45,587 nt of DNA from Oscillatoriales cyanobacterium CG2_30_40_61 (GTDB lineage: Bacteria > Cyanobacteriota > Cyanobacteriia > Cyanobacteriales > Microcoleaceae). The DNA is taken from NCBI GenBank assembly GCA_001873365.1, contig MNYZ01000086.1, positions 1 through 45,587 of the forward strand, in the 5' to 3' direction. The notes under the pieces were generated by a model. The model ran no database searches, was not told the DNA's origin, and worked only from the letters and a program-made list of their open reading frames with translations. Position numbers and translations under genes: made by a program. This document shows, one piece after another, positions 24,998-39,716 of this stretch (the first letter of the stretch is position 1; each line of letters opens with the position of its first letter).

Positions 24998-25023
24998 ATT
25001 TAGATAATTCTTAATGTTTGACT

Positions 25024-25084
25024 TCATAACCCGCGAAGGCGGGTTTTGTCCGTGTAGCGACAGATTTCAATCTGTCGGAATATC
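25024..25084. repeat. Dispersed double-hairpin repeat, copy 2
   Basis: Second copy of the element at 23773-23833, in the same orientation, lying between gmd and the 1171-residue glycosyltransferase gene. Its two hairpins (ACCCGCGAAGGCGGGT and CGACAGATTTCAATCTGTCG) could act as an intercistronic mRNA structure or terminator. It could also have been a substrate for recombination around gmd. Confidence 0.9.
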
Positions 25085-25099
25085 AGAATCTTAAAACTA

Positions 25100-28000
25100 T
25101 TATAAACGACTAACAATCCCTAGAATTCGTTCCATTGCATATTTCCATTCTGGGGATTGACTTAAGGTAGACGCATCCAAATAATGGTTTTTATAATTGG
25201 ATAAGCGCACAAAATCATTAATCCATTCTAACACAGATTCGGTGACAAATTCAAAGGGGGAGTATTTTAATGATTGTTCAAGAAAATCAACCATTTGAGA
25301 GAGGTTTCCTTGGGTATAATGATACCAAGCATTCCAAAGTAATGAAGCATATTTGAGACGATGGTTAAGATGTTTTACTTCGGTTTTAGTTAAGGGTAAA
25401 TTTTTTAAGGTATTTTCTTCGGAGGAATTTAAAGCAGTTTCTATAATTTCTAGGGTTTGTTTTAACATCCGATCTTCTTTAAATAATTCTTCCGCCCGTT
25501 GTTTGGATGCTACACCCATTTTAGATAATAACAGAGGATTAACGGCTAATTCTTGCAGGGTTTGAACAAGGTCATTAACCGTTTTTTCGGGATCAATATT
25601 AGGATCACTTAACAGTTTTCCAGTGTCTCCTAATCCTTCTGGAATACCCCCCGCAGCCGAGGCTATAATGGGTAATCCTTTTGCCATGGCTTCCATAATT
25701 GCAAAGGAGGGAGCGGCTTCTGCTAGGGAGGTTAATATGAAGATATCACAGGCATCTAACCAGTCAGGAATATCCCATCTTTGCCCTAAGAATATTACTT
25801 TACTACCAACTCCTAATTCCTGCACTTTTTGTTTTAATTCATGTTCTAAATTATGATCACTTCCCTCTCCTGTTCCTGCCCAAACAAAGTATAATTTTTC
25901 CCAGATGGAAGTGTGTTTTAATTGAGCGATCGCTTCTAACTGAAACCGATGTCCTTTAATCGGGGCTAATCTTGCCGTTGTTAAACACATAATCCCATCT
26001 TCAGGAATGCCTATTTCTTGCCGTAACCGTTGACGAGTGGCTAAATTAGGCGGAGCAAAATATTTTTCCGATCTTCCATAATATACCACATTTCCTTGAT
26101 CTTTTGGTAAGCCAAATTGGTCTTGTAAAATCTGAATATGTTCGTAAGCTGCGGTATTAAAAGTCCGGGCTAATCCATATTGATATAATACTCCTTTGGC
26201 GTAGGAAATACCATCTCCCATGGTAAAATTAATATGTTCTGGCATAGCTAATCCCAAGGCAATCATATAGGGAATATGGCGTTGAATTGCGACTTGTTTA
26301 GCGGCAAAATGGGAGTAGGGCCAGCCATCACTAAAAATAATAAAATCGGGCTTAATTTCATCATAAAGGGTTTCTGCATCTTGGGTATTTCTGAGAATTC
26401 TCGGTAGGTCTTTACTGGTACTATAGTCTAACCAATATTGCTGAATTCCTAACTCTTTTTCTGCTTCAACTAAGGGGTTATGGTGTTGGGGTCTAACGGC
26501 GGTTACTTTATATCCTAATTTAGCTAATTCACACAGAATTAAATGATCATATTGTGCTAAACCTCCAATACCAGGATCATCCGTATTCATTAACAGAATA
26601 TGGGGTTTATTTGAGGGAGGATTTATGCTGGGCTTGGGTTGGGAGGTAAGTTTTGGATTCATAATTTTATGGATAATAGATTGCCATTCCTGAGATTGAA
26701 TTAAAGCATAGGTATCTATTTTTTCCCCATAGTCTGCTGCAATATTTTGAAACCCATCCAGCCATTGAGAAATTGTTTCGGTTACGGGGAAAAAAGTATA
26801 TTCTATGGATTTCTCTAAACAATATATCATTAAATCGGTATAACCATCTCGATACATTCGCCAAGCCAACCATACCCAACGATCATAACTTTCTTTCCGA
26901 TATAATTTACGAATTTGATCGGGAAGATTGGGATAATTAAAAAAATTATCCATAACAATTTCAGTATTTTCAATAACTTTTAATCCTCCTGACATTAAGT
27001 TATGATCATGTTGACGATAACAGGCGTGAATTTCTTTTAACCAAACGGTTTTGCATCCCATTAAAGAAAGGCGTAAAACAAAATCCAGGTCTTCTGTCGG
27101 GGGATAGCGATGATCAAATCCTCCCACTTTTTCCCACCATTCTCGGCGTAGAATCATAGCACTAGGACGCACGCATTTATGTAAAACCCAAGTTTCTAAA
27201 TTCAACTCCGGCGCGTTTCCCCAAGGCGTAATTACGCTGACTCCGATGCCTTTTTTATTGACAACACACCAGCCACTTTGAATTAAATCAATAGTAGGAT
27301 CATTATCAAAAGTAGCGACCTGTTCGGCTAATTTTTGAGGTAAGAAAAAGTCATCCCCATCTAAAAAAGCTAAAAATTCTCCTTGTGCTATTTCACAACC
27401 ATGATTTCTAGCTTTTGCTGCTCCTTGATTGTCTTGATAGATATATTTAATTACAGGGAAAAAAGGTTTAAGAATTTCTCTAGTTTGATCTTGAGAGCCA
27501 TCATCAATCACAATAACTTCATAATTAGTATAGGTTTGTTCGAGAACACTTTTAACGCATTGTTTAATATATTGATCACAGTTATAAGCTGGAATAATTA
27601 CACTAACTCTAGGTTTATTTTGGGGGATATTTTCAATAATTAATTGTTTCCATTCGGGCAAATTATAGAATTTTTCTAACTCAAGTTCGTAACCATAACC
27701 TTGACAATAACCAATAAATCGATGTACCCAGTCAGAAATAGTAATTGCTACGGTATAAGGGGTATAAAGTAAAGATTTTTGGAGAAATTCAGCCATTGCT
27801 TGAGGATGATTAGTATGATATAAATGCCATGCCATCCAAGTTAAAGTTTCATATCGAGCGGGTTTTTCCAGTTGCAAAATTTCATTGGATAAATTGGGCT
27901 GGCTAAAAAAATAATCGTGAAGTGATACAATTAAATTAGCCCTTTCTCTGGCTTTTTGATTGGAAACAGTTTGCTCATGTTGTCGATAATTAACAGTAAT

Positions 28001-28615
28001 TTCTGGTAGCCAAATGGCTGCATATCCTTGTAATCCTAAACGCCAAATAAAATCAACATCATCGACCCCATTAAACCGAGAATTAAATCCTCCCACTGCT
28101 TCCCAACATTCTCGCCTAAACATTAGGGAACTTGGTAAAATTGGAGTTCTTGTTATCCAAGTTTCTAAGGTTAAATCGGGTAAATTATGCCAAGGTTCAA
28201 TATCAGAAATGTTATGATTATTTTGATCAATTAAACGCCAGCCACTATTAACAATAGCTACATTTGGGTTAGCATCAAAATAGTCAACTTGATGGGCTAA
28301 TTTTTCCGGTAAAAACACATCATCTTGATCCAGTAAAGCAATTAACTCTCCTCTAGCTTCCTGAATTCCGCGATTTCTAGCGGCTGCAACTCCCTGATTA
28401 GATTGAGTAATATAATGAATTAAAGAAGGATCTTGTCTTATTTCTAAATAGTGTTGTATAATGTTGGATGTATTATCAGTTGAACCATCATCAACGATAA
28501 CAATTTCATAGTTTGAGTAGGTTTGACTCAAAACACTATCGATGGCTTGGCTAAGATAGCGATCGCCATTATAACTAGGAATAATAACACTAACTCGAGG
28601 AAATGAAATCAACAT
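25100..28615 (-). CDS. Three-enzyme GT2-GT2-GT4 glycosyltransferase with repeated Trp-rich helical module
   Basis: 1171 residues. GT2 domain 1 (6-225): VSVIIPSYNGDRYL, VDDGS at 41-45, DQDD at 97-100, and YRQHEQ. GT2 domain 2 (336-555): VSVIIPAYNCDQYI, DDGS near 371, DGDD near 419, YRQHDHN. GT4 domain (670-1065): GIGGLAQYDHLI, TARLAPIKGH, and AEAAPSFAIMEAMAKG with the EX7E-type motif. After each domain comes the same 80-residue helical module (253-332, 575-653, 1087-1166) with W..AW..Y, KS..Y and EW. Such multi-domain proteins can add several sugars in sequence. Both GT2 domains keep their metal- and nucleotide-binding Asp residues. Cytoplasmic, no membrane segment seen. It is followed by gmd after 102 bp. 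Confidence 0.9.
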   Translation of the reverse strand: MLISFPRVSVIIPSYNGDRYLSQAIDSVLSQTYSNYEIVIVDDGSTDNTSNIIQHYLEIRQDPSLIHYITQSNQGVAAARNRGIQEARGELIALLDQDDVFLPEKLAHQVDYFDANPNVAIVNSGWRLIDQNNHNISDIEPWHNLPDLTLETWITRTPILPSSLMFRRECWEAVGGFNSRFNGVDDVDFIWRLGLQGYAAIWLPEITVNYRQHEQTVSNQKARERANLIVSLHDYFFSQPNLSNEILQLEKPARYETLTWMAWHLYHTNHPQAMAEFLQKSLLYTPYTVAITISDWVHRFIGYCQGYGYELELEKFYNLPEWKQLIIENIPQNKPRVSVIIPAYNCDQYIKQCVKSVLEQTYTNYEVIVIDDGSQDQTREILKPFFPVIKYIYQDNQGAAKARNHGCEIAQGEFLAFLDGDDFFLPQKLAEQVATFDNDPTIDLIQSGWCVVNKKGIGVSVITPWGNAPELNLETWVLHKCVRPSAMILRREWWEKVGGFDHRYPPTEDLDFVLRLSLMGCKTVWLKEIHACYRQHDHNLMSGGLKVIENTEIVMDNFFNYPNLPDQIRKLYRKESYDRWVWLAWRMYRDGYTDLMIYCLEKSIEYTFFPVTETISQWLDGFQNIAADYGEKIDTYALIQSQEWQSIIHKIMNPKLTSQPKPSINPPSNKPHILLMNTDDPGIGGLAQYDHLILCELAKLGYKVTAVRPQHHNPLVEAEKELGIQQYWLDYSTSKDLPRILRNTQDAETLYDEIKPDFIIFSDGWPYSHFAAKQVAIQRHIPYMIALGLAMPEHINFTMGDGISYAKGVLYQYGLARTFNTAAYEHIQILQDQFGLPKDQGNVVYYGRSEKYFAPPNLATRQRLRQEIGIPEDGIMCLTTARLAPIKGHRFQLEAIAQLKHTSIWEKLYFVWAGTGEGSDHNLEHELKQKVQELGVGSKVIFLGQRWDIPDWLDACDIFILTSLAEAAPSFAIMEAMAKGLPIIASAAGGIPEGLGDTGKLLSDPNIDPEKTVNDLVQTLQELAVNPLLLSKMGVASKQRAEELFKEDRMLKQTLEIIETALNSSEENTLKNLPLTKTEVKHLNHRLKYASLLWNAWYHYTQGNLSQMVDFLEQSLKYSPFEFVTESVLEWINDFVRLSNYKNHYLDASTLSQSPEWKYAMERILGIVSRL

Positions 28616-28657
28616 AAATTTAAAGTTTTAGATAATTAACTTGTTATTATAAGTCTT

Positions 28658-30508
28658 ATGGAGATCGATGATCAATTGTTATACACAAACCCCATGTCGG
28701 CTTCTACTTTATACGAACAGGCGGAACTTTATAGAAATCAGGGAAATTTAGAAGATGCGATCGCATTTTATCAAAAAACTATCGAACTTGATCCTAACTT
28801 TTCCTGGGCCTATCATCAACTCGGCGATATTTTCTCCGAGCAAAATAACCCGACAGAAGCCATTGGTGTTTATCGTCAAGCGATCGCCCTTAACCCTAAC
28901 TTTTCCTGGTCTTATCATAACCTAGGAATGGTATTAATTCAACAAAAACAATGGGATCAAGCAATTTTAGCTTACTCTAAAGCTATTGAATTAAACCCTG
29001 ATTTTTGTTGGTCATATTATTATTTAGGAGAGGCTTTTTTTCAACAGCAAAATTGGCAAGCATCTGTTACTGCTTATTTTCAGGCTTGGAAACAAAACCC
29101 CGATTTATTAGAGAGTATCAATCAAATTGGAGCCATACTTCAAGCTCAAATAAAAAAAGGATTAGAAACCGTAATTAATGAGTATGGTCGGGGAATTAAT
29201 CAACCTGATGATTTTGCACCCTATATCAAATTAGCAGAAATTCTAACTCAAAAAAATTATGAATTTGCAGCCCTAGTATTGTATCATATTGCCGGGAAAA
29301 TTCAACCCAATAATTTAGATATTTCTCAAAAAATAGAAACACTTTTAGAGCAAAAAAGAGTTTTAGAGCAAGAGGTTAAAAAATGTCAGGATGCTGTTGA
29401 GCTTAATCCTAATAATCCTCAAAATTATTATAACTTAGGAATGGCGTTAGCTCGCAACCAACAGCCGGATAAAGCGGTTTTTAGCTATCTGAAATTCTTA
29501 GAGCTTAAACCAGATTTATACCTTTGGAATTATCAAACTATTATTGATTTAATAGCAACACAAAATCAAATTATCGCAGCTATTAATATTGTAAATCAAG
29601 GGATTGAAAAAGATCCAGAATCTTCTATTTTATATTTGAATTTAGCCGGATTATATACTGCTCAAGGAGATTTACAATCTGCGATAAAATATAATTATAT
29701 TGCTGGTCAAAAAATTATCCCTAAATTTCGTCCACAATGGCAAAATATTTCCCAAATCTTAAAACAGGTTAATCACCTAGATTATTTAATTATTGGAACT
29801 CAAAAAGGCGGTACAACTTCTTTAAATTACTATCTTTCTGAACATCCCAATATTATCTCCTCAATGATTAAAGAAATGCCTTTTTGGTCAAATCAAATTC
29901 ATCGAGGTTTGGAGTGGTATTTTTCCCATTTTCCCCCTATTCCTAACGACTATAACTGTTTAGTTGGAGAAGCCACACCCATGAATTTTAATTCTCCAGA
30001 AGTAGCCGAAAATTTAGTTAAATTTTTTCCAAATGTGAAATTAATTTTATTATTAAGAAATCCAATTGATCGAGCAGTTTCTCATTACTATCATTGGTTA
30101 AGTTTAAAATGGGAATTATCTTCTTTTGAGGAAGCAATTCAAAGAGAAATCAACCAATTAGAGGATCAAAAAACTGATTTTTGGACAAAACTTCATAACC
30201 CAAACTTTCAAGGCTATTTAGCAAAGGGGTTGTATATTAATTTCTTGGAAAAATGGATTAAAGTATTTCCTAGGAAACAATTTTTAATTTTAAGCAGTGA
30301 AGAATTTTATGTAAACCCTGACCTAAAAACAACAGAAGTCCTGAATTTTTTGGGTTTACCAGAATATCATTTATCAAAATACCATCAATATAATACCAGA
30401 CCCTATCCGCCCATATCTGAATCAACCCGGAGATTACTCAATGATTATTTTCAGCCTTATAATCAGAAATTAGAAGATTGTTTAGGAATGCAGTTTAACT
30501 GGAATTAG
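28658..30508 (+). CDS. TPR-sulfotransferase fusion (second copy)
   Basis: 616 residues. 13-150: four TPRs (NFSWAYHQLGD, NFSWSYHNLG). 160-350: less regular helical repeats with two more clear TPRs (250-285 and 315-345). 374-616: sulfotransferase with PAPS loop LIIGTQKGGTTSLN (377-390), a KEMPFWS acceptor/dimer loop, and the 3'-phosphate motif LLLRNPIDRAVSHYYHW (464-480). This resembles the heparan N-sulfotransferase/Sulfotransfer_1 branch, unlike the HIPKTAG branch at 1347-2948, so the two enzymes probably sulfate different positions or acceptors (inference). Start: ATG at 28658; the ATG at 28694 (MSASTLYEQ) is possible. It is divergent from the GT2-GT2-GT4 gene, 42 bp apart, sharing a promoter region. 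Confidence 0.9.
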   Translation: MEIDDQLLYTNPMSASTLYEQAELYRNQGNLEDAIAFYQKTIELDPNFSWAYHQLGDIFSEQNNPTEAIGVYRQAIALNPNFSWSYHNLGMVLIQQKQWDQAILAYSKAIELNPDFCWSYYYLGEAFFQQQNWQASVTAYFQAWKQNPDLLESINQIGAILQAQIKKGLETVINEYGRGINQPDDFAPYIKLAEILTQKNYEFAALVLYHIAGKIQPNNLDISQKIETLLEQKRVLEQEVKKCQDAVELNPNNPQNYYNLGMALARNQQPDKAVFSYLKFLELKPDLYLWNYQTIIDLIATQNQIIAAINIVNQGIEKDPESSILYLNLAGLYTAQGDLQSAIKYNYIAGQKIIPKFRPQWQNISQILKQVNHLDYLIIGTQKGGTTSLNYYLSEHPNIISSMIKEMPFWSNQIHRGLEWYFSHFPPIPNDYNCLVGEATPMNFNSPEVAENLVKFFPNVKLILLLRNPIDRAVSHYYHWLSLKWELSSFEEAIQREINQLEDQKTDFWTKLHNPNFQGYLAKGLYINFLEKWIKVFPRKQFLILSSEEFYVNPDLKTTEVLNFLGLPEYHLSKYHQYNTRPYPPISESTRRLLNDYFQPYNQKLEDCLGMQFNWN

Positions 30509-30608
30509 ATTGAGTTTATCTTTCTATAATCATGCTATGGAATCAAATCCTGATTTTGACTAATCACCCACTAAAATAACCTAAATAGGGTTAAAACCGG
30601 AAAAAATT

Positions 30609-31085
30609 ATGATTAAATCTTGGATGGTAATTGGAGGAGTGGCATTTTTAGTCGCCTTAGCCAATAATATTGTTTTAACCCCTGATGATATCCGATGGTT
30701 TAATCGTTTAACCCGTCCGGGTTGGTTAACCTTTGAAAAAGCAATTCCTTTAATTTGGATAATCGTTTTTATTGCGGGGGCTTGGTCAGCAATTTTAGTC
30801 TGGGAAACCGAGCCCGGACTATCCCAAACCTGGGTATTAATGGGATTTTACCTATTATTAGAAATAGTAATTTTGTCCTATACCCCAGTCATGTGTAAAG
30901 CCAAAAGTTTACGGGTCGGAACAATATTAGGAGGGACAGGTTTTATTTTAGGCTTGATGTTAATGGTCAGTGTTTGGCCAGTGTCTCAAACCGCGGCCTA
31001 TTTACTCCTCCCCTTTGTCCTCTGGAGTCCAATTGGAACCTACACCACCTGGGCGATGCTCCCACTCAACCCCGCAGATGCTTAA
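30609..31085 (+). CDS. TspO/MBR-family (tryptophan-rich sensory) membrane protein
   Basis: 158 residues with five predicted membrane helices: about 5-22, 48-66, 76-94, 103-122 and 128-148. Family-type features are NRLTRPGWLTFEKAIPLIW after helix 1 and AWSAILVWE in helix 2, with LLPFVLWSPIGTYTTWAM at the end. TspO proteins bind porphyrins or tetrapyrroles and modulate stress responses. This one belongs to a divergent cyanobacterial branch, so ligand binding is not assured. No operon partner is obvious; a hairpin terminator follows. Confidence 0.8.
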   Translation: MIKSWMVIGGVAFLVALANNIVLTPDDIRWFNRLTRPGWLTFEKAIPLIWIIVFIAGAWSAILVWETEPGLSQTWVLMGFYLLLEIVILSYTPVMCKAKSLRVGTILGGTGFILGLMLMVSVWPVSQTAAYLLLPFVLWSPIGTYTTWAMLPLNPADA

Positions 31086-31094
31086 AAACAGACC

Positions 31095-31127
31095 AGCCAC
31101 CTACTACTTCTTCAATAATAGGTGGCT
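31095..31127. terminator. Hairpin between convergent TspO-like and infB genes
   Basis: AGCCACCTA (31095-31103) pairs with TAGGTGGCT (31119-31127) around a 15-base loop. It sits 10 bp after the TspO-like stop and 40 bp after the infB stop, so it may serve both convergent genes. There is no strong T tract on either side, so intrinsic termination is only moderately likely. Confidence 0.55.
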
Positions 31128-31166
31128 GCTGTGACATTAGGGATAAAGGCCCCAAGCGGTGTACTT

Positions 31167-34100
31167 TTAAGATAAGGACAAAGTACGGCGTTTAGTGGTC
31201 ATCCGATAGGCTTCGATAATATCGCCCATCGCCCAGTCATTGAAGTTATCCAAGGCGATACCGCACTCATAACCGGCGTTAACTTCCTTAGCATCCTCTT
31301 TCATCCGTTTCAGGGAGTCGAGGACACCTTCATGAACCAACTCATTTTTCCGACGAACTCGGATTTTACAGTTCCGAATCACTTTACCTGAGAGCACATA
31401 ACAACCAGCGATGGTATTGCGTCCCACGGGGAAGATCGCCCGGACTTCCACTTGACCCAGATGTTCTTCCACCAATTCCGGCTCTAATAGCCCTTCCATG
31501 GCAGCCTGGACGTCATCTAAGAGGTTATAAATGATGTTGTAATCACGGATATCTACTCCCGCGCGATCGGCTGCTTGACGAGCACCATGGGCTAAGGTGG
31601 TATTGAATCCGAGTAAGACCGCATTACTGGCCGCGGCTAAGTCAATATCCGTTTCCGTAATTTCACCCGGAGCCGCTAACAGCAATTGCAGTTCGACCTC
31701 TTTTTGAGGCAGTTTCTTCAGAGCTCCAACGATCGCTTCTATAGATCCTTGAACATCCCCCTTGAGGATCAAGTTCAGTTCCTTCAACTCACCCTGTTGA
31801 GCGCGGGCGGAGAATTCACTCAGACTGATCCGACCCTTGATTAAACGGGTTTCCCGTTTAGTTTCTGCCCTTTGGGTAGCCAAAGCCGAGGCTTCTTTTT
31901 CATTTTCAAAGACCTCGAATTCATCTCCGGCCGCCGGGACATCCCGTAGACCTAAGACCTCAACGGCAAAAGAAGGAGTGGCATTCTCAACCCGATCGCC
32001 TCGGTCATCCACCATCGCCCGGACTTTACCCAGGACTGAACCCGCCACCACAATATCCCCAACTCGCAGGGTGCCATTTTGTACCAACAGCGTTGCCACA
32101 GGGCCACGGGATTTGTCGAGGTGAGCTTCAATAATTGTTCCCTTCGCAGCCCGGTCGGGGTTAGCATAGAGATCTTCCACCTCCGCCACTAACAGAATCA
32201 TTTCTAAGAGGGTATCAAGATTTTCTCCCCTAATCGCACTCACCGGAACCATAATCGTGTCACCGCCCCATTCTTCAGGAACCAGGGCAAACTCCGTGAG
32301 CTCCTGTTTCACCCGATCAGGCTGGGCACCTTCCTTATCAATTTTGTTGATCGCAATAATAATCGGGACTCCGGCGGCCTTAGCGTGGCTAATGGCTTCA
32401 ATGGTTTGGGGTTGGACACCATCATCGGCGGCCACCACCAGAATTGCCACATCCGTAACTCGTGCACCCCGGGCTCGCATGGCGGTAAAGGCTTCGTGAC
32501 CCGGAGTATCCAGAAACACCACTTGCTGGGTTTTACCCTCATGTTCCATATCGACATGATAGGCCCCGATGTGCTGGGTAATGCCCCCGGCTTCGCCTTG
32601 AGCCACTTTGGTTTCGCGGATCGCATCCAGGAGGGTAGTTTTCCCGTGATCGACGTGACCCATGATCGTCACCACCGGAGGACGGCGTTGCAGATGCTCC
32701 AGATCTTCGGCGTTGAGCATATTGTCGGGCTTGATAGCACCGGATTTGAGTTTTTCGTTTTCAACTTCAACCCCCAGGTCTTGACAAATTAACAGAATTG
32801 TGTTGTAGTCGAGGGTTTCGGTAATATTAACGGCAATTCCTTGGGAAAACAGGCGTTTGATAATTTCCGTTTCCGGCAGAATTAAGGCTAGGGCGAGTTC
32901 CTGAACCGTCATTGGCCCAGGTACGATTACTTTCTCCGGGCGTTCCGCCTTGGGTTTGGCCTCCGTCCGGCGCGAATTGCCGCCAGAAGAACTTGAACCC
33001 CGACTGGGGGCTGGTTTTTTCGGTCTAGCCGTTGTCGCCGTCACATTTTGCCCAGGGCTGGCTTTAGGTTTGGGAGGACGAGCCAGGGAGACGCTAATCA
33101 TGGCATTATTGGCATTCAGCAGAGACAAGGCATTCAGTTCATCGTCATCGTCCTCATCCAAGGAGGGTTTTGCCCGTCGCTTGGCTTTGAGTTTAGCTGC
33201 CTTGGCTTTAGCGGGATCTACAACTTCTTCTTCTTCCTCCTCCCATGCTCCTGTTCGTTTTCCTGGGCGCGGGGGGTTGGGTCGATTTAAGGTGACAGCC
33301 CGTTTTGGCCGTTTGACTAAATCATCAGTAGTAGAAGCGGTTTCCTCCTCCGCGCTCTCGGTCGATTCTCCATCCTCATCAATAGCTTGAGCGGGTTTCC
33401 GCGCGGCTGGGAGTTGTAAATCCGAGACAGATCGGGGTCGGGGACTGCCAATCTCTTTACGCGGCGGTCTTCTGGCTTCTGAGTCCCTTTCTTTCCCCTC
33501 AGAGGTCGTCTGTTGAGACTTGGGCGTGGGTTTTTCGGGAGATTCCGTTTTGGCTCTGGACTCAACGGGTTTAGGCGCTGGTTTATTCGTCTTCAAAACC
33601 GGCTTGTTTTTAGAAATTGCTGCCGGCTCTTCTTGGGTAACACTGACCGTAACTGGAACTGGCCCGGCAGGTCTAACCGGCGGCGGAGACAGGGGTGCGG
33701 GCTCCGCCAGAGATAAATCCTGTTCGGCAGTTTCTATCTCCCCTACCGATGCTAACCCAGACATCTCCTCAGTTGCTGAGGCAACATTTTCGGCTGTTGT
33801 CGGGGAAGATTGCGTTTCTGCTGGAGCCGCAGCAGTGGGTTTTGATAAGACAGGTCGATTTAACGTGGGTTTCACAGGCGCTTTTGAAGAAACAAGTGAT
33901 TTAGGTGGGGTGGCAACGGAAGTTGAGTCAGAGGAACTGGCCTCATCGTAGGGGGGAGAGGACTCGAAGCTCGACCGAATTTTGGGCTTCTGGATCTCTA
34001 AAATTTCTTGCCGTTTTTTGTCGCCCGGTGCGGTCGCTGATAATTTCCCATTAGCTGCCGCTCCGGGTGCTTTGCCTTCAAGCTGACCCGGGTTCGGATG

Positions 34101-34262
34101 AGTTGCGACATATTTTTCAATGCGTTCTTTATCTGATTCTGAAATCGTGCTACTGTGGCTTTTAACCGAAATATTTAGCCGTTCACACACCGCTAAGATG
34201 TCCTTGTTATCCAAATTAAGTTCCCGTGATAGTTCGTAAATTCTGACTTTGGCGTTGTTCAT
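31167..34262 (-). CDS. infB: Translation initiation factor IF-2
   Basis: 1031 residues. The N-terminal IF2_N helix ([20 protein letters not shown]) is followed by about 350 residues rich in Pro, Ala, Lys, Ser and Glu with low complexity, as in other cyanobacterial IF-2 proteins. A second IF2_N subdomain is at about 445-510. The GTPase has G1 [14 protein letters not shown] near 530, G3 DTPGHEAF and G4 NKIDK, then the EF-G-like and fMet-tRNA-binding C2 domain. It delivers initiator tRNA to the ribosome. The ATG at 34262 has AGAGGGG about 8 bases upstream. It is the last gene of the rimP-nusA-ylxR-infB cluster, separated from ylxR by an unusually long 430-bp gap. Confidence 0.97.
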
Positions 34263-34692
34263 CCACTGACCCCTCTTCTTACCTACCCATGGTTTGATGT
34301 TTACATAGTTCGATTTACTCTTACAACAGTAACCCGCACATTTTAAATAACGATATCATCTACTCTGGTTATTTAAGTGTCAAGGATGCAGATGTAAGGT
34401 CTGCTTTGACATTTCTTAATGTTATTTTAATTTTTGGTGAAATTGAATTCCTCAAATCTTTAGGATTGTCTTTTATCAAGTTAGCAGATATTAACCTTAT
34501 GGTGAAGGATAATCAATTAAGTTACTCAGTTTACTCTATTTTGCTTCAAGTTCAACCTCTTAGTCCTCTATCTGGGGAGTAGGTTTGCTGAGGGAATAGA
34601 ACGATATTGTTGAGCAACTCGAGAGCTTCAGAGTCCGGGCAACTGTTCCCACCCTTGCCTATCAAGTAGGACGTGGGGGGATCAATTCCAGG
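34263..34692. other. 430-bp ylxR-infB intergenic region
   Basis: No open frame, tRNA or known RNA family could be recognised. The left part (34263-34560) is AT-rich. The right part (34600-34690) is GC-richer with short complementary runs (CCCACCCTTGCC, GTGGGGGG) and could form a structured leader upstream of infB. A separate infB promoter in this gap is plausible but cannot be pinned to a site. Confidence 0.4.
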
Positions 34693-34935
34693 TTAATCTA
34701 AACGTTCCCATAGACTTTGATAGACTTCCTCCGACACCGATGTTCGGAGTGCGTGTCCCAGTCGATTTTTTTTCTGAGCCAGTTTCAAACAATCCGGGTT
34801 AGGGCAAAGATAGGCTGAACGACCCATGCCATGATCCAATTGTACCTGATGTGATGGATAGAGCCTGACAAATCGCCAGAAGCTTTCCTTTGCACCCAAT
34901 CGGCGACAAGCCACACAACGACGTTGATTTTTCAT
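34693..34935 (-). CDS. ylxR: YlxR family (DUF448) RNA-binding protein
   Basis: 80 residues. NQRRCVACRRLGAKESFWRF at the N-terminus (CxxC-RR motif), GMGRSAYLCPNPDCLKLAQKK (the GRGAYLC-type motif) and KNRLGHALR are diagnostic of DUF448. YlxR proteins bind nucleic acid; in Bacillus the homologue (RnpM) modulates RNase P. It lies between nusA and infB, as in most bacteria, with 170 bp of tandem repeats separating it from nusA. No clear Shine-Dalgarno is seen upstream of the ATG. Confidence 0.93.
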   Translation of the reverse strand: MKNQRRCVACRRLGAKESFWRFVRLYPSHQVQLDHGMGRSAYLCPNPDCLKLAQKKNRLGHALRTSVSEEVYQSLWERLD

Positions 34936-34955
34936 CGGTTGACAGTTGAGAGAAT

Positions 34956-35043
34956 GGGTAATGGGTAATGGGTAATGGGTAATAATGGGTAATGGGTAAT
35001 ACTTCGACTTCGCTCAGTAACAGGGTAATGGGTAATGGGTAAT
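34956..35043. repeat. Heptanucleotide (GGGTAAT)n repeat with conserved central spacer
   Basis: Six GGGTAAT units (34956-35000, with one extra AAT) are followed by a 22-base spacer containing CTTCGACTTCGCTCAGT, then three more GGGTAAT units (35023-35043). The same arrangement is present in inverted orientation at 42560-42616. This is the STRR class of short tandem repeats known from filamentous cyanobacteria. It lies between nusA and ylxR. Confidence 0.92.
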
Positions 35044-35060
35044 AGCAAAAGTTTACTCCC

Positions 35061-35105
35061 GGTGCTCCCGGTGCCTCCGGTGCTCCCGGTGCCTCCGGTG
35101 CTCCC
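35061..35105. repeat. 9-bp tandem repeat (GGTGCTCCC/GGTGCCTCC) abutting nusA stop
   Basis: Five alternating 9-bp units fill exactly 45 bp and end at the base next to the nusA stop codon (35106-35108 on the reverse strand). It is GC-rich in an AT-rich neighbourhood. Any frame through it would encode Gly-Ala-Pro/Glu-Ala-Pro repeats, but the nusA stop precedes it. Confidence 0.9.
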
Positions 35106-36332
35106 CTACTCCTCCTCCCCAAACTGATCATAGTTGCGATCGCTAATCGCCGCCTCTTGACGTTCAAATTCTTCGGCAATTTTTTGGTCTTCGGCCGCGG
35201 CATCATATTTAGCCGTATCTTTAATATCGATTTTCCATCCCGTCAACCGAGCAGCCAGACGAACATTTTGCCCCTCCTTACCAATAGCCAAACTCAATTG
35301 ATCTTCAGGAACCAGAATATGGGCGCGACGTTCATCGGGATTGACTAAACGCACCTCATCGACCCTGGCCGGACTCAGGGCATTAGCAATATAGGTGGCG
35401 GGGTCGGGAGACCAGCGAATCACGTCGATTTTCTCGCCCCGCAGTTCGTTGACCACCACTTGAATCCTTGACCCCCTAGCCCCAATACAGGCTCCAACCG
35501 GATCAACATCTCGATCTATGGTATCTACTGCGATTTTAGTCCGGGGGCCGACATGACGGGACGGGGGGTTAGCTTCCCTGGCCACAGCCACAATTCGCAC
35601 CACTTCATCCTCAATTTCGGGGACTTCATTGGCAAATAGATACACCACTAACCCGGCATCGGCCCTGGATACTAATAATTGTGGCCCCCGTTGGGAACCT
35701 TGGGAGACTTTTTTCAAATAGACCCGAAAGGTCGCATTAGCCCGGTAGTTATCATTGGGCAGTTGTTCCCGTTTAGAAAGTTCCGCCTCTACCCCAGCCC
35801 GACCAAAGCCACTAGCCACTTCCAGAATCACCGATTGGCGCTCAAATCGCAGGACTTTGGCTTGCAATACCGTGCCTTCGAGTTCTTTGAACTCCTCTTG
35901 AATCATTTTGCGCTGCTTATCTCGCAGTTTTTGGGCTAAAACCTGTTTGGTTTGGATCGCCGCCATCCGACCAAATTCCCCTTGATCCGGGGTAACATCG
36001 AGGGTGACGGTATCCCCTAATTGGGCTTCGGGAGCGACTTCTCGCACGTCTTTTAAGGCAATTTGATGATCTTGGTTGCTAACTTGTTCAACAATGGTTA
36101 GGTTTTTGGCTAAGACTCGAAATCCTTCTTCATCGACATCGAGTTCGACATCAAAATTATCAAAATAATCTTCACTAAATTGGGTCTGAATTTCAATGGT
36201 ACGACGATACCGTTCATAACCTTTTAATAGGGCTTCTCGTAGGGCTTCTTCTACCGCCTGTTTGGGTAAATTCCGCTCTTGAGAAATGCCATTAATCATA
36301 TCTTGTAAACCGGGCAAACTCACCATCGACAT
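35106..36332 (-). CDS. nusA: Transcription termination/antitermination factor NusA
   Basis: 408 residues, normal for cyanobacterial NusA, which lacks the C-terminal acidic repeats of E. coli. Order: NTD binding RNA polymerase (1-130, AVEEALREALLKGYERYRR), S1 domain (about 135-200, LEGTVLQAKVLRFERQSVIL), KH1 and KH2 (230-370: VGACIGARGSRIQVVVNELRG, with the GxxG loop, and SLAIGKEGQNVRLAARLTGW). It controls pausing, termination and antitermination. GAGG lies about 10 bases before the ATG. The C-terminal tail is acidic and ends just before a 9-bp repeat array. Operon with rimP upstream. Confidence 0.97.
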   Translation of the reverse strand: MSMVSLPGLQDMINGISQERNLPKQAVEEALREALLKGYERYRRTIEIQTQFSEDYFDNFDVELDVDEEGFRVLAKNLTIVEQVSNQDHQIALKDVREVAPEAQLGDTVTLDVTPDQGEFGRMAAIQTKQVLAQKLRDKQRKMIQEEFKELEGTVLQAKVLRFERQSVILEVASGFGRAGVEAELSKREQLPNDNYRANATFRVYLKKVSQGSQRGPQLLVSRADAGLVVYLFANEVPEIEDEVVRIVAVAREANPPSRHVGPRTKIAVDTIDRDVDPVGACIGARGSRIQVVVNELRGEKIDVIRWSPDPATYIANALSPARVDEVRLVNPDERRAHILVPEDQLSLAIGKEGQNVRLAARLTGWKIDIKDTAKYDAAAEDQKIAEEFERQEAAISDRNYDQFGEEE

Positions 36333-36424
36333 AGTTTTTATCCTCTAAACTTTATTTTTTGTTGATCACACAGATGAATTTTTCCCAGGAAAATTGGGGA
36401 AGTACATCGCCGTGGTTAAAACCT

Positions 36425-36892
36425 TTACTCCTCGCCACTTTCATCGAATAACACTTCCGTAATTAATTCCCGGGGAATGGCTAGTTGTCGTCCTTTTTGG
36501 CTTAAATAAACCTTAGTTTCATCCCGACTCACCAGTTTTCCCCGTTGTTGAGAATGACCTTTGTAGGGTTCTGATGTTTTAACAATAATGGAAAATCCTT
36601 TGAATGAAACGAATTCGCGATCACTGGTTAAAGATTCTGAAATTCCAGGGCTGGAAATCTCCAACACATAGGCATCGGGAATAATATCTGTGGTCTCTAA
36701 TTGTTCTTCCAAAGCTCGACTCATCCGTTCACAATCTTCTAATCCGGTATCCTGACTGGGGTTGCGGATATCTACACGCAGTACAGGAGGTTTCTGATTG
36801 GTGTAAAAGGTTGCCCCAACCACGGATAGTCCCAATGTTTGGGCGATGGGGCTGGCGATGTCGAGAATTTTGGGGATTAGAGGATGAGCCAT
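36425..36892 (-). CDS. rimP: Ribosome maturation factor RimP
   Basis: 155 residues with the family motifs [42 protein letters not shown] and [15 protein letters not shown] in the expected order. RimP assists late assembly of the 30S subunit. It is the first gene of the minus-strand rimP-nusA-ylxR-infB cluster, 92 bp before nusA. The ATG at 36892 fits family lengths; no strong Shine-Dalgarno is seen. Confidence 0.95.
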
Positions 36893-36990
36893 AGTTGACG
36901 TGAATACTAGAGTCTACAGGGGTTAGGAGCTTAACTGCCATTAAAAAAGTGGGTCAATCCCACTCCAGATCGTGAAACAGTGTCTCAAGC

Positions 36991-37020
36991 CAAAGACGAA
37001 CCCTGTGGGTTCGCCTCTTT
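36991..37020 (-). terminator. Hairpin upstream of rimP / downstream of the 37100 gene
   Basis: On the reverse strand AAAGAGGCGAACCC pairs with GGGTTCGTCTTT around a 3-base loop, with one bulged base. It sits 80 bp downstream of the stop of the 37100-38542 gene and about 100 bp before rimP. That fits a terminator separating the two, or a leader structure for rimP. No long T run follows, so strength is uncertain. Confidence 0.5.
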
Positions 37021-37099
37021 CTCTAGTTTAGCTTACAGCGAAAGCAATTGCTAGATATCGGCTTTTGAGTTGGGATCTAGGGTCTGGGATCATTTCTGT

Positions 37100-38542
37100 T
37101 TATTGGGTTTCTTTGAGGTGTTTTTGTTGCTGTAATTGGGCAAGAACTTGTTCAAAGTTAGATTCATCCACTTGTTGAATATAGTTGATTTTAAATTCTT
37201 CTAAAAAGTCAACTAAAAGGGTTTGAATTTCCTCTAAGCCCTGTTCTTTTTGCAGTTCTTCTCCTGGAATTTTATTAAAGTTTTTCACCAGTTGATTTGA
37301 TAATTTAGTTCCCACGGGATCATTCATGGCTTTGGTTACGGTTTGATAGGCTTCTTGGGGCCCTTCCCTGGCTAATTTGGAAAGTTCGGTAATCATTCTT
37401 TCTTGAATCTGTTGGGGAATTTGTTGTAACCCTGGAATAGTTTTAAACTGTTGAATCACCGGAGATTGTTCGATAACCTGTTCTATATTATAGCGCAATA
37501 AGGCTTCAATATCAAGTTCCAATTTAGGAATAACTTTATCAACGATAATCTGAATTAAATGATTAGCGATCGCTTCTATTTCATTAATATTATTAATATC
37601 TAAATAGGGTTTATTTTGATTCAGAAACAGTTGTTTAAAAATATCGCCTCTCCGAATTTCCCCTTGAATCTGTTGAATCACTTCAATCACCACGAACTCG
37701 GTTAATTCCCTGGCAATTGCAGCGACAAATCCCCTAGTTATTTGGATTCTAATGGGTTCCAAACTAATAAAATTGACCTGATTTAAACGAATAGTTACCG
37801 GAATAATTCTTAACAGTCTAAAAACAGGTAAAAACAAAAACATATCATACCACCGCCATAACATCGCATCAAACCAAGTTACCTTAGAATAACGACGACT
37901 AATCAAATAGGTTCTCGCTAAAAATTCCAAAACAAAAATGATAGTAAATGGTAAATCAACTTTCCAAAAGGTGCGGGTAAATTTTCCATTCTCCGACAGA
38001 CTCCGATAATAGTTGGTCGCCACTAGGGGTCTAATATTTTTATCAAACCATTTGATTTGTTGGTCATAACCATTTTGTTTAAAATAAGATGAAGACCAAA
38101 ATATATTAAAAGATTCTTTTGCCGAATTATTGGGATTTTTGATATGCTCTCGCATCCGATTTTTGATCCGTTCTAAAGTCCCACTTTTCTCCGCAATAGC
38201 AAAGGGATTTTCATTGATAATTTCCTCGCTTTGATTTCTTAATTTCCCTAATATTTCCTCGGTTTCAGGCGAATATAAGCTAGTTTCAGCTACCGTAACT
38301 TTTAACTGTTCAATGGTATCTAAATATTTTTCTGTGGTTTGATGGGGTTCAATTCCTTTAATCGGATCATAAACTTGAGTCACAGCTGGAGTATAGTTAA
38401 AATAGTAATCTCGCAGATCCGTATAACTCAGGTCGAATAAAACTAACCCGTAGTTCAGCGTCGCAACCACGGCCATCAACTGTTCAGACCAGGGAATATT
38501 TTGATTTTTTTTAACCGAAACAGTGTTTTTCACAATTAGCAC
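37100..38542 (-). CDS. Membrane protein with voltage-sensor-like segment, function unknown
   Basis: 480 residues from a GTG start at 38542 (another GTG at 38533). A hydrophobic segment is at 22-39 (MAVVATLNYGLVLFDLSY), then about 150 mainly helical charged residues. Two hydrophobic segments at 196-213 (DLPFTIIFVLEFLARTYL) and 230-252 are joined by SRRYSKVTWFDAM. The last reads FLFLPVFRLLRIIPVTIRL, with Arg spaced as in an S4 helix; EFLAR and W-D upstream resemble S2/S3 of voltage-sensor domains. The C-terminal half (260-480) is amphipathic and Gln/Glu-rich, probably cytoplasmic. No pore filter is visible. I do not recognise a named family; it looks like a conserved cyanobacterial protein. Confidence 0.75.
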   Translation of the reverse strand: MLIVKNTVSVKKNQNIPWSEQLMAVVATLNYGLVLFDLSYTDLRDYYFNYTPAVTQVYDPIKGIEPHQTTEKYLDTIEQLKVTVAETSLYSPETEEILGKLRNQSEEIINENPFAIAEKSGTLERIKNRMREHIKNPNNSAKESFNIFWSSSYFKQNGYDQQIKWFDKNIRPLVATNYYRSLSENGKFTRTFWKVDLPFTIIFVLEFLARTYLISRRYSKVTWFDAMLWRWYDMFLFLPVFRLLRIIPVTIRLNQVNFISLEPIRIQITRGFVAAIARELTEFVVIEVIQQIQGEIRRGDIFKQLFLNQNKPYLDINNINEIEAIANHLIQIIVDKVIPKLELDIEALLRYNIEQVIEQSPVIQQFKTIPGLQQIPQQIQERMITELSKLAREGPQEAYQTVTKAMNDPVGTKLSNQLVKNFNKIPGEELQKEQGLEEIQTLLVDFLEEFKINYIQQVDESNFEQVLAQLQQQKHLKETQ

Positions 38543-38593
38543 CGATTATTAATAACATTTTTAGGTATTATAGTTGATAATTACGAGTTATTA

Positions 38594-38634
38594 ATTCGTA
38601 ATTCGTAATTCGTAATTCGTAATTCGTAATTCGT
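38594..38634. repeat. Heptanucleotide (ATTCGTA)n tandem repeat
   Basis: Five full and one partial copies of ATTCGTA without mismatch, in the divergent promoter region between the voltage-sensor-like gene and the GT2 gene, ending 32 bp before the GT2 start codon. STRR-type array; copy number probably varies between strains. Confidence 0.93.
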
Positions 38635-38666
38635 TTAGCATTTAATAAATTTTACCAATTAAATCT

Positions 38667-39716
38667 ATGTCCCATGCTTTAACAACTCCCCAAATTAGTG
38701 TAATCATTCCAGCATACAACTGCGATCGCTATATTGAGCAAGCCGTCGAAAGTATTCTTAATCAAACCTATCCTGCTGACGAAATTATTATTATTGATGA
38801 CGGTTCCCAAGACAATACCCGTCAAGTCTTACAACCCTATTCTGACTATATTCGCTATGTTTATCAAGAAAATCAAGGGGTTTCTGTAGCGCGAAATCAT
38901 GGGTTAAATTTAGCCCGGGGAGAATTTATTGTGTTTCTGGATGCGGATGATATCTTTCTTCCCGATAAATTAGCAGCCCAACTCGCTGTTTTTCAGGCCC
39001 AACCCCACCTGGGACTGGTTCAAAGTGGATGGCGTCGCGTCACCCACACAGGCGAAACCCTGATGGATGCGACGCCTTGGGAGTATGTTCCCGAATTGAA
39101 TTTAGAAACTTGGTTACGTTGGAAACCCTTGGGAACCATGGGAACTTTGATGTTTCGTCGAGAATGGTTATTAAAAATAGAAGGATTTGAACCGGGGTTA
39201 GCCCACGCAGAAGATGTGGATTTAATCTTAAGAATGGCATTATTAGGGTGTGAATCTGCATGGTTACAGCAACCAACGGTTTGTTACCGTCAACATGACC
39301 GGAATACCATGCGGGATGGAGTTTCTCAAGCGAAATCAATTAATTATGTTTTGGATAAATTTTTTAATTTTCCTAATATTCCCCTAGAAATTCGGTTAAT
39401 TGAAAATTGGGTACGTTACAGCACCTTAGTTTGGAGTTCCTGGTATTTATATTATACTGGATTTCCCCTAAAAATGGCAGAATATTTACAAAAATCTTGG
39501 CAATATACGCCATTTTTAGCGGTGGAAACCCTAATCAATTGGACAGAAAGTTTTGTGCATTATTCTGATAGTTTAGGACAGACTTTAGAAGTGAATCAAC
39601 TTTGTAATTTGCCCGAATGGCAAAATTTAACCCTTTGGGTTTTACAACAAACTGTAGAAAAACGTTCTGAAAATGTAGGGGCAGGTTCCGCAACAATATT
39701 CAATTCTCACCAATAA
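38667..39716 (+). CDS. GT2 glycosyltransferase with one Trp-rich helical module
   Basis: 349 residues. GT-A fold GT2 domain at 8-225: ISVIIPAYNCDRYIEQAVES, IIDDGS at 42-47, LDADDIF with the DXD-like metal site near 92-95, MFRREWL, and VCYRQHDRNTM. Residues 249-329 carry the 80-residue module seen three times in the 25100-28615 product (W at 256 and 259, Y, KS..YTPF, LPEWQ). Its GT2 domain closely resembles GT2 domain 2 of that protein (VPELNLETW versus APELNLETW), suggesting a common origin by domain duplication. It lies alone on the plus strand, convergent with the TPR-GT61 gene 24 bp downstream. Sugar and acceptor unknown. Confidence 0.9.
   Translation: MSHALTTPQISVIIPAYNCDRYIEQAVESILNQTYPADEIIIIDDGSQDNTRQVLQPYSDYIRYVYQENQGVSVARNHGLNLARGEFIVFLDADDIFLPDKLAAQLAVFQAQPHLGLVQSGWRRVTHTGETLMDATPWEYVPELNLETWLRWKPLGTMGTLMFRREWLLKIEGFEPGLAHAEDVDLILRMALLGCESAWLQQPTVCYRQHDRNTMRDGVSQAKSINYVLDKFFNFPNIPLEIRLIENWVRYSTLVWSSWYLYYTGFPLKMAEYLQKSWQYTPFLAVETLINWTESFVHYSDSLGQTLEVNQLCNLPEWQNLTLWVLQQTVEKRSENVGAGSATIFNSHQ

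What the first reader, a model, noticed from the sequence alone, without database searches (positions are those of the whole stretch)
25118..39653. A repeated ~80-residue Trp-rich helical module that follows glycosyltransferase domains (four copies)
The 1171-residue GT2-GT2-GT4 protein carries the same module after each catalytic domain (27620-27859, 26657-26893, 25118-25357), and the separate GT2 protein carries it at 39411-39653. Shared pattern: Y-x(3-4)-W-x2-W-x2-Y, then M-x3-[LF]L-x-KS-x2-Y[ST]x[FY], then W-x3-F and finally a peW motif. It follows both GT-A (GT2) and GT-B (GT4) folds, so it is not part of either fold. I know of no named domain with this pattern. It may be a docking or acceptor-binding module that lines up consecutive sugar transfers.
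Basis: partly seen in the sequence, partly recalled or inferred. Interest (0 to 1): 0.7.

Follow-up and report, generated by a model that had tools for sequence, protein, structure and literature searches.

The report
Shared helical tail on glycan enzymes
A small, unnamed helical domain related to TPR repeats is fused to many different sugar-, sulfate- and methyl-transferring enzymes of filamentous cyanobacteria, and may be the connector that gathers them into one machine for building cell-surface sugar chains.

Summary
All four copies are at the stated places and are far more alike than chance (39.6-85.8 bits pairwise; maximum 13.5 against 2000 shuffled copies). No Pfam or NCBIfam model matches the module above its cut-off. 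It is predicted to fold on its own (pLDDT 90.9). Its central hairpin resembles a single diverged TPR repeat. The best-matching solved GT2 structures cover the catalytic domain.

The module also ends sulfotransferase, methyltransferase and FkbM proteins behind long coiled coils, ends coils without an enzyme head, and twice stands at an N-terminus. All 61 genomes of the window's family carry it. Of 47 good genomes there, 47 have a frame with several modules, 46 a GT2-module frame, and at least 40 a coil-module protein.

Best reading: a portable assembly module of cytoplasmic glycan machines. Multi-GT proteins would play the part of the polymerase WbdA, and enzyme-coil-module proteins that of the terminator and ruler WbdD, but here both sides carry the same module. 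Docking is inferred, not shown; genomes with a single copy argue against obligatory pairing. Novelty: new variant of a known kind.

The parts
25100..28615 (-). 1171-aa GT2-module-GT2-module-GT4-module protein (P0001)
   Evidence: Pfam
27953..28591 (-). first GT2 (GT-A) domain, aa 9-221
   Evidence: PF10111 best stretch
27626..27934 (-). module copy 1 (after first GT2)
   Evidence: E=2.5e-46
27254..27604 (-). second GT2 domain, Pfam core aa 338-454 (the domain itself runs on toward module copy 2)
   Evidence: PF00535
26657..26962 (-). module copy 2 (after second GT2)
   Evidence: E=8.7e-47
25553..26566 (-). GT4 (GT-B) domain, aa 684-1021
   Evidence: PF13692 aa 877-1021 (84 bits, above cut-off) and PF13579 aa 684-787 (25 bits, below its cut-off of 29.7)
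25121..25420 (-). module copy 3 (after GT4); folded in isolation at pLDDT 90.9
38667..39716 (+). 349-aa GT2-module protein (P0002)
   Evidence: AF2 pLDDT 90.4
38697..39170 (+). GT2 Pfam core of P0002, aa 11-168
   Evidence: PF00535
39342..39647 (+). module copy 4 (after GT2 of P0002)
   Evidence: E=1e-44
24035..25027 (-). GDP-mannose 4,6-dehydratase gene directly downstream of P0001 on the same strand; a close homologue lies within 1.7 kb of a module-bearing frame in 9 other loci
28658..30508 (+). neighbour: canonical TPR array + Sulfotransfer_1 (context, no module)
39741..42404 (-). neighbour: canonical TPR array + GT61 (context, no module)

Best explanation
The module is an autonomous, TPR-related helical domain of about 78 residues: a long helix A, a helix B, a helix C, and a short terminal pair ending in EW. 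It serves as a portable assembly module. It holds cytoplasmic glycan-building and glycan-modifying enzymes together, either by self-association or through a common partner. In the window it sits after each of the three catalytic domains of one multi-GT protein and after one single GT2. The same genome has one sulfotransferase-coiled coil-module protein (C99). Across the family the usual set is one or more multi-module GT proteins, one or more GT2-module proteins and an enzyme-coiled coil-module protein. I propose that this set works like the WbdA/WbdD machine. The multi-GT protein extends the chain. The sulfotransferase or methyltransferase, held at the far end of a coiled coil of variable length, caps or decorates it. 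The shared module is the meeting point. SHOWN: presence, distribution, architectures, TPR-like register of the A/B hairpin, predicted autonomous fold, clustering of module-bearing genes. INFERRED: docking, partner identity, ruler function, and that the product is one surface glycan.
For: (1) Autonomy: an isolated GT4-linked copy is predicted at pLDDT 90.9, pTM 0.80, and full-length P0002 at pLDDT 90.4. (2) Portability: one profile finds it behind GT2, GT4, sulfotransferase, Methyltransf_11, Methyltransf_24 and FkbM heads and in one protein with FkbM, TPR and MptE-like domains, behind coils without a head, and at two N-termini. (3) TPR relation: profile against PDB sequences, the best hits are consensus TPR proteins at profile positions 29-53 (best E=8.4e-7); hhalign score to a TPR profile 19.7 against a maximum of 7.6 in 100 column-permuted controls and 2.8 for the reversed profile; 34 of 35 weak TPR hits fall in one register. 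(4) A recurring set: of 47 good family genomes, a frame with two or more modules in 47, a single GT2-module-sized frame in 46, a coil-module protein confirmed by sequence in 40 (and the loci). (5) Clustering: in 16 genomes with large contigs, 27 of 58 module-bearing frames lie within 20 kb of another (null mean 1.3, maximum 10 in 10000 placements); with seven tandem or fragment entries dropped, 14 of 51 (null mean 1.0, maximum 10). (6) Five loci pair a GT2-module frame with an adjacent short coil-module frame without a head. The headless coil-module frames of L051 and L059 have a separate sulfotransferase gene directly upstream. (7) A close homologue of the GDP-mannose dehydratase beside P0001 lies next to multi-GT proteins in 5 loci (4 of them in the window's genus) and next to coil-module proteins in 4. 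(8) In the module tree, coil-linked modules form one group (10 rows, SH-aLRT 99) that carries both sulfotransferase and methyltransferase-type heads, so coil plus module moves as a unit. (9) Precedent: a C-terminal region of WbdD recruits the polymerase, and coil length sets chain length (passages of PMC3482155, PMC5082667, PMC11231755).
Against: No interaction was measured or modelled. Eight of 52 positive genomes of the order have only one match (seven strong, one at E=0.008), so pairing between different module proteins cannot be universal. Five of 47 family genomes show no coil-module protein. In one search no single stretch of the top TPR hits passes the E-value limit on its own: the low E-values are sums over repeats of designed proteins. 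The 34 of 35 register agreement is among related copies. The Wzt_C transporter expected by analogy is in 57 of 60 family genomes but also in a control genome outside the family, Synechococcus elongatus, and in the window's genome it is on another contig. The isolated module has no significant Foldseek match in the PDB (best E=0.18). Without tandem copies, clustering within 5 kb is only 4 of 51 (null mean 0.26, maximum 6), and two complete genomes, G520 and G521, have none of their six frames within 20 kb of another (positions). The tree uses 78 columns and 40 of 76 inner branches are open.
Confidence: 0.52

Rival explanations
1. Acceptor-binding module: the Trp/Tyr-rich face binds the growing sugar chain (or its lipid carrier), keeping the acceptor near each active site, like a carbohydrate-binding module.
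For: Invariant W and nearly invariant Y residues. If the TPR register holds, the W (100%) and Y/H (96%) of helix A fall on TPR positions 9 and 12, which from recall line the ligand groove. The Pfam-matched heads are all transferases of kinds that act on glycans. TPR-polymer contacts are mentioned for other capsule systems (passages of PMC11666461). It explains genomes with one copy.
Against: It does not explain headless coil-module proteins encoded beside GT2-module genes, nor a module hundreds of residues away from the sulfotransferase head. Whether the aromatics are exposed is unknown (no coordinates).
Confidence: 0.2
2. Membrane-attachment module: the aromatic helices lie on the cytoplasmic membrane face and place all these soluble enzymes at the site of the lipid-linked acceptor.
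For: No 19-residue window reaches a Kyte-Doolittle mean of 1.8 in 187 of 191 module proteins, so something else must bring them to the membrane. WbdD's C-terminal region holds a membrane-associated amphipathic helix (passage of PMC11231755). It explains portability and single-copy genomes.
Against: The conserved aromatics sit at fixed positions in a high-confidence helical unit with TPR-like packing positions, which fits a protein fold better than a loose amphipathic anchor. Conserved acidic residues (E in ETxxxW, EW) are not typical of a membrane face (inference).
Confidence: 0.13
3. Homo-oligomerisation or stabilising cap only: the module makes dimers or caps folds, with no specific joining of different enzymes.
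For: Single-copy genomes. Coiled coils oligomerise anyway. In Cps3D contacts between TPR domains seem important for the dimer, although truncated forms still dimerised (passages of PMC11666461).
Against: Three copies in one chain after different folds, a recurring set of protein types per genome, and clustering of unlike architectures suggest more than self-capping.
Confidence: 0.15

Closest known systems
Tetratricopeptide repeat (TPR) superfamily
   Same: The A/B hairpin has the TPR spacing in one register: L4, [IL]7, A8, L11, G15, M20, L24, S27, P32. Profile hits go to consensus TPR proteins, and the hhalign score is well above permuted controls.
   Different: One repeat only, not an array. 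Two invariant Trp in helix A outside the packing positions, an additional helix C and an EW terminus. Of 52 copies, TPR_8 touches 2, TPR_2 touches 1 and the PPP5 TPR model touches 1 at E up to 10. No significant whole-module structural match.
WbdD, O-antigen chain terminator with coiled-coil ruler (E. coli O9a)
   Same: Layout: modifying enzyme (methyltransferase), then a long coiled coil, then a C-terminal recruitment region (passages of PMC3482155, PMC11231755, PMC5082667).
   Different: Heads here are sulfotransferase, several methyltransferase types, FkbM or none; none of the heads scanned has a kinase match. The tail is a conserved domain also present on the glycosyltransferases.
Klebsiella O7 ORF6 and O4 ORF7 coiled-coil terminators
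   Same: ORF6-O7: methyltransferase, coiled coil and, in some, GT2 modules; the paper mentions orthologues in cyanobacteria. ORF7-O4: a TPR-like helical bundle next to the coiled coil (passages of PMC11231755).
   Different: The described cyanobacterial orthologues are not said to carry a shared terminal module; in ORF7-O4 the TPR-like bundle precedes the coil. No sequence comparison was made here.
WbdA and other multi-GT polymerases
   Same: Several GT domains in one polypeptide (passage of PMC11231755).
   Different: GT2-GT2-GT4 with a module after each domain. I did not compare sequences with WbdA.
TPR domains of TagF-like capsule polymerases (Cps3D, Cps7D)
   Same: A TPR part on a glycan polymerase, needed there to elongate the linker (passages of PMC11666461).
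   Different: Those are 14- to 20-helix domains on one enzyme class. This is a single-repeat module of about five helices on many classes.

Membership tests
TPR repeat | 34-residue helix-turn-helix with consensus packing positions 4, 7, 8, 11, 20, 24, 27, 32 (consensus recalled) | tested here: met
   Positions match in one register across 174 distinct modules, 34 of 35 weak hits in that register, profile score above all 100 permuted controls.
TPR repeat | Recognised by curated TPR models above their cut-off | tested here: not met
   The four module-only sequences have no TPR hit at E<=1. Of 52 members, TPR_8 touches 2, TPR_2 1 and PPP5 1 at E up to 10, best E 0.0051.
TPR repeat | Occurs as tandem array (usually three or more, recalled) | tested here: not met
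   One hairpin per module. A doubled-TPR profile scores 22.6 against 19.7 for one repeat, extending only weakly into the upstream GT2 linker.
TPR repeat | Structural match to TPR domains | tested here: inconclusive
   Foldseek lists several TPR proteins (NprR, CTPR2, FimV TPR3), all at E>0.7; VIA-align was not available.
WbdA/WbdD-like polymerase-terminator machine | Modifying enzyme on a long coiled coil | tested here: met
   37 coil-module frames, 30 with a head, among 46 module frames of loci mostly chosen for this; 13-14 more. The coil was called by letter composition, not by a coil predictor. That the enzyme terminates a chain is not tested.
WbdA/WbdD-like polymerase-terminator machine | C-terminal region recruits the polymerase | not testable with these tools
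   Needs a binding experiment.
WbdA/WbdD-like polymerase-terminator machine | Coil length sets chain length | not testable with these tools
   Head-to-module distance varies, 288-455 residues in five genomes of the window's genus; no glycan data.
WbdA/WbdD-like polymerase-terminator machine | Wzt transporter with C-terminal carbohydrate-binding domain | tested here: inconclusive
   Present in 57 of 60 family genomes but also in 2 of 14 control genomes.
GT2 / GT4 glycosyltransferases (catalytic parts of P0001, P0002) | Match to curated family models above cut-off | tested here: met
   PF00535 at 257.9 and 130.9 bits, PF00534 at 85.6 bits.
Normal C-terminal part of GT2 enzymes | Solved GT2 structures superpose on the module | tested here: inconclusive
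   Of the 50 hits shown, the best nine cover 207-235 columns at 2.0-3.4 A, leaving the C-terminal third out; hits of 300 or more columns have rmsd 6.0-11.6 A; RmlT (TM about 0.65 by query for the best chains, about 6 A) may overlap the C-terminal helices in part. Aligned ranges are not printed.
Normal C-terminal part of GT2 enzymes | Other GT2 genes of the same genome carry it | tested here: not met
   Of 41 matches to P0002 in the genome, 35 end at or before query residue 233; the six that reach further are the four window places, C99 (module only) and C49:8644-9519, which reaches residue 274. The module profile finds only the first five.

The most novel reading that the evidence does not exclude
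A shared docking domain is the organising code of a cyanobacterial glycan factory. Chain-extending multi-GT enzymes and chain-capping sulfo- or methyltransferases on coiled-coil rulers all carry the same TPR-derived plug. Heads can be swapped and coil length changed by 42-bp repeat slippage while the machine stays assembled, giving fast evolution of surface-glycan type and length.
Probability: 0.3. Interest if true: 0.85.

Novelty: new variant of a known kind. Interest (0 to 1): 0.66.

Why it matters
If true, an unannotated domain marks the enzymes that work together on one surface glycan in bloom-forming and nitrogen-fixing filamentous cyanobacteria (Planktothrix, Trichodesmium, Arthrospira, Microcoleus, Moorena). 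That would let the members of poorly known exopolysaccharide pathways be listed from sequence alone. It would give the ruler principle known from Escherichia and Klebsiella O-antigens a common connector on both partners, with sulfation as a possible chain-end or decorating step, and it offers a small part for joining glycan enzymes on purpose.

Tried and rejected
Rejected: that the module is only a GT2 C-terminal cap (it also ends non-GT proteins; structural test inconclusive). Rejected: that it always follows GT domains (same calls). Rejected: weak Pfam hits VHP, AAA_lid_11 and others (single members, below cut-off). Not supported: phage or plasmid spread (0 of 28 pattern matches in viral contigs confirmed; one module query without match in phages; one plasmid record, Oscillatoria acuminata PCC 6304, for one module query, again the best for P0001). 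The viral structure library gave no match with E below 0.34. The label 'FkbMMaf' in my script for L080, L091 and L094 comes from a TPR stretch in the probe; Pfam shows TPR there for the frames scanned, so I do not count them as FkbM. The head called MT_L064 looks like a methyltransferase to me by eye but has no Pfam methyltransferase match (L064, L212); the L074 head and L218 were not scanned by Pfam. Literature (open-licence library, eight searches): searches listed no paper whose title or abstract start names such a module; led to the WbdD papers; one search found the coil motif only as a short string in one unrelated allergen paper. Of the listings I saw titles and abstract starts; of PMC5082667, PMC11231755, PMC3482155 and PMC11666461 only passages.

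Limits of the counts: the 47 genomes are 47 of the 52 good genomes of the family; the window's own and four others were not. Multi-module and GT2-module counts there are read from open-frame lengths and match starts, not from every sequence. Coil-module counts are from fetched sequence; two further candidates (G541, G542) were not fetched. Four coil-module frames have unsure N-termini: L088:17010-17774 is cut by the contig end, L066 and L057 hold runs of N, L227 lacks an obvious start. The 60 regions were chosen by me from the listed hits, leaving out many plain GT2-module hits and all unlisted hits. A first clustering test on 12 genomes (19 of 35 within 20 kb; 12 of 31 without tandem copies) was widened to 16, which lowered the share; positions were typed, lengths of G099, G046, G083 and G084 are rounded, some frames of fragmented genomes are left out, and the genomes were picked by me, so it is a rough test.
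Full report
WHAT WAS CLAIMED AND WHAT IS THERE. The finding names four copies of a Trp-rich module of about 80 residues, three in a 1171-aa GT2-GT2-GT4 protein and one in a 349-aa GT2 protein. Both frames exist and the module is at the stated places. The four copies align with 13 invariant columns and score 39.6-85.8 bits against each other, while 2000 shuffled copies reach at most 13.5 bits. A model of the four finds one further copy in the same genome (C99:6272-6505, E=3e-17).

ANATOMY. From 116 modules the core reads, with the commonest letters, Y-x2-L-V-W-x-A-W-x2-Y-x2-G-x3-E-M-x3-L-[QE]-K-S-x2-Y-[TS]-P-x4-E-T-[IV]-x2-W-x-E-x-F-x3-S-x3-G-x2-[FL]-D-x3-L-x-N-x2-E-W-[QK]. GT2-linked copies have an extra upstream stretch, FF-x2-P-x-LP-x2-IR-x-LE, which the coil-linked copies lack. 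AlphaFold2 gives pLDDT 90.4 for the whole P0002 (74 sequences) and 90.9 for the isolated GT4-linked copy 3 (41 sequences), with helices 16-40, 44-57, 63-80, 87-92 and 94-103 of that 110-residue piece. It is therefore predicted to be an autonomous helical unit.

RELATION TO KNOWN FOLDS. The module matches no Pfam or NCBIfam model above cut-off (four copies; 52 members scanned singly in Pfam). The strongest hint is TPR. A module profile searched against PDB sequences finds consensus TPR proteins first (best E=8.4e-7, profile positions 29-53); these E-values are sums over repeats, and no single stretch of the top hits passes the limit alone. Weak TPR hits in the modules share one register in 34 of 35 cases; these modules are related to each other, so this is not 34 independent facts. 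In that register TPR positions 4, 7, 8, 11, 15, 20, 24, 27 and 32 are mostly L, I/S/L, A, L, G, M, L, S and P, and the invariant second W is position 9. From recall, positions 9 and 12 face the ligand groove in TPR proteins; this could not be checked because no coordinates are given. The whole module has no significant Foldseek match in the PDB (best E=0.18) or among viral proteins (best E=0.34). I conclude: a single diverged TPR hairpin with its own extra helices.

NOT SIMPLY A GT PART. Against the PDB, the nine best hits of the full P0002 model are GT2 structures aligned over 207-235 columns at 2.0-3.4 A. Among the 50 hits shown, those with 300 or more columns have rmsd of 6.0-11.6 A; RmlT chains (about 316-324 columns, about 6 A, TM up to 0.65 by query) may overlap the C-terminal helices in part. 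In the window's genome 41 places match P0002; 35 end at or before residue 233, and the six that go further are the four window places, C99 (module only) and C49:8644-9519, which reaches residue 274.

WHERE ELSE IT OCCURS. In the window's order (195 genomes drawn), 52 have it at E<=0.01; eight of these have one match, one of the eight weak. In the phylum (386 genomes drawn), 25 have it at E<=0.001, two of them outside the order. In the window's family all 61 of 61 genomes have it, 3-9 matches each. A pattern-based scan of 84,980 bacterial and archaeal species gave 79 confirmed loci of 82 pattern matches, all in cyanobacteria by title: Planktothrix, Arthrospira, Trichodesmium, Okeania, Microcoleus, Moorena, Xenococcus, Pleurocapsa and others. 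That scan can only see close relatives of the GT2-linked type. The window is closest to Planktothrix (94% identity of the module to P. rubescens).

ARCHITECTURES. In one search, 145 frames with 175 modules were classed by my own probes: 94 GT2-module, 12 GT2-module-GT2-module-GT4-module, 6 sulfotransferase-coil-module, 4 coil-module, 4 GT4-GT2-module, 4 GT-module-GT2-GT4, 3 methyltransferase-like-coil-module, 2 GT4-module and rarer ones. 71 of the 94 plain GT2-module frames come from the pattern scan, so these are not population frequencies. The window genome's fifth copy is a sulfotransferase-coil-module protein (L035; Sulfotransfer_3 at 31.2 bits, cut-off 27). In 40 further loci, most of them chosen as likely coil types, 46 module frames were found: 37 coil-module (19 sulfotransferase heads, 6 L064-type heads, 3 FkbM, 1 like the Methyltransf_11 head of L054, 1 Methyltransf_24, 7 without a recognised head), 6 GT2-module, 1 GT4-module and 2 with the module at the N-terminus (L214, L237) (Pfam). 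By letter composition the coils run from about 77 to about 697 residues. They are built of 14-residue units, and in two genes the 42-bp DNA units match at 96% in about ten copies, while the window genome's own coil shows only degenerate 42-bp periodicity.

A RECURRING SET. In 47 good genomes of the family, a frame with two or more modules is present in 47, a single GT2-module-sized frame in 46, and a coil-module protein is confirmed by sequence in 40 (two candidates not fetched, five none) (and the loci). Genes with modules lie near each other more than chance allows: in 16 genomes with large contigs, 27 of 58 within 20 kb (null mean 1.3, maximum 10), and 14 of 51 after dropping seven tandem or fragment entries (null mean 1.0, maximum 10); within 5 kb the latter is only 4 of 51, which some random placements reach. 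In the window the two genes are about 10 kb apart around infB-nusA, and P0002 keeps that place in Arthrospira and Lyngbya (L130, L201). Five loci, in four genera, have a GT2-module frame next to a short coil-module frame without an enzyme. Headless coil-module frames in L051 and L059 have a separate sulfotransferase gene directly upstream. A close homologue of the GDP-mannose dehydratase that follows P0001 was found in 9 of 181 loci, in each within 1.7 kb of a module frame: beside multi-GT proteins in five (four of the window's genus) and beside coil-module proteins in four. The loci are centred on modules, so this is no proof of exclusive linkage, but it ties the two classes to one sugar pathway.

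HISTORY. In a tree of 79 modules (78 columns, weakly resolved), coil-linked modules form one group with support 99, holding sulfotransferase and methyltransferase-type heads alike. GT4-linked and coil-linked modules, with two GT2-linked and one FkbM/MptE-like one, lie together with support 88. So the coil with its module was probably joined to unlike heads after it arose.

HOW IT MOST LIKELY WORKS. An interaction module explains portability, three copies in one chain, headless coil-module proteins and gene clustering better than a catalytic or purely stabilising role. The nearest working model is the O9a O-antigen machine. There a C-terminal region of WbdD recruits the polymerase WbdA, and the coiled coil of WbdD sets the distance between extension and termination (passages of PMC3482155, PMC5082667 and PMC11231755). 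The last paper also mentions cyanobacterial orthologues of a methyltransferase-coiled coil terminator, and a TPR-like bundle beside the coil of another terminator, so parts of this picture have been seen before. Here multi-GT proteins would extend, coil-held sulfo- or methyltransferases would cap or decorate, and the shared module would join them. What is different is that both sides carry the same module. Against this stand genomes with one copy, five family genomes without a coil-module protein, two complete genomes without clustering, and the lack of any binding data. Glycan binding and membrane attachment remain open rivals. 187 of 191 module proteins have no strongly hydrophobic stretch, so the work is probably cytoplasmic.

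VERDICT. I rate it a new variant of a known kind, interest 0.66.

Noticed in passing
window 1347-2948, 16804-19167, 28658-30508, 39741-42404: A parallel set of glycan enzymes with canonical TPR repeats: TPR plus sulfotransferase (1347-2948, 28658-30508) and TPR plus GT61 (16804-19167, 39741-42404); 1347-2948 and 16804-19167 also hold DUF4214.
   Followed up: partly
L059:8206-8630, L074:8857-9267: 42-bp tandem repeats, about ten copies at 96% match, coding a 14-residue (two-heptad) coiled-coil unit; likely to change length by slippage.
   Followed up: partly
L229, L239, L240, L241, L242: Short frames (189-269 aa) that are only coiled coil plus module, next to a GT2-module gene, in five genomes of four genera.
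   Followed up: partly
L214:4765-7500 and L237:1-2856: The module at the N-terminus of GT-B-type glycosyltransferase proteins, the reverse of the usual order.
   Followed up: partly
L051:9733-10845 and L059:8779-9831: A separate Sulfotransfer_3 gene directly upstream of a headless coil-module gene, as if the head had been split off.
   Followed up: partly
G126:C1:2107853-2107966 and G190:C1:1909866-1909979: Module fragments in 49-aa frames, perhaps remains of a lost coil-module gene; in G126 about 2.5 kb from a GT2-module gene.
   Followed up: no
G534:C98:17530-17808: Third module of the multi-GT protein has a TGA inside the match, so this copy may be disrupted or a sequencing error.
   Followed up: no
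window 31167-36892: The glycan genes flank a conserved infB-nusA-rimP block, and P0002 keeps that place in Arthrospira and Lyngbya.
   Followed up: partly
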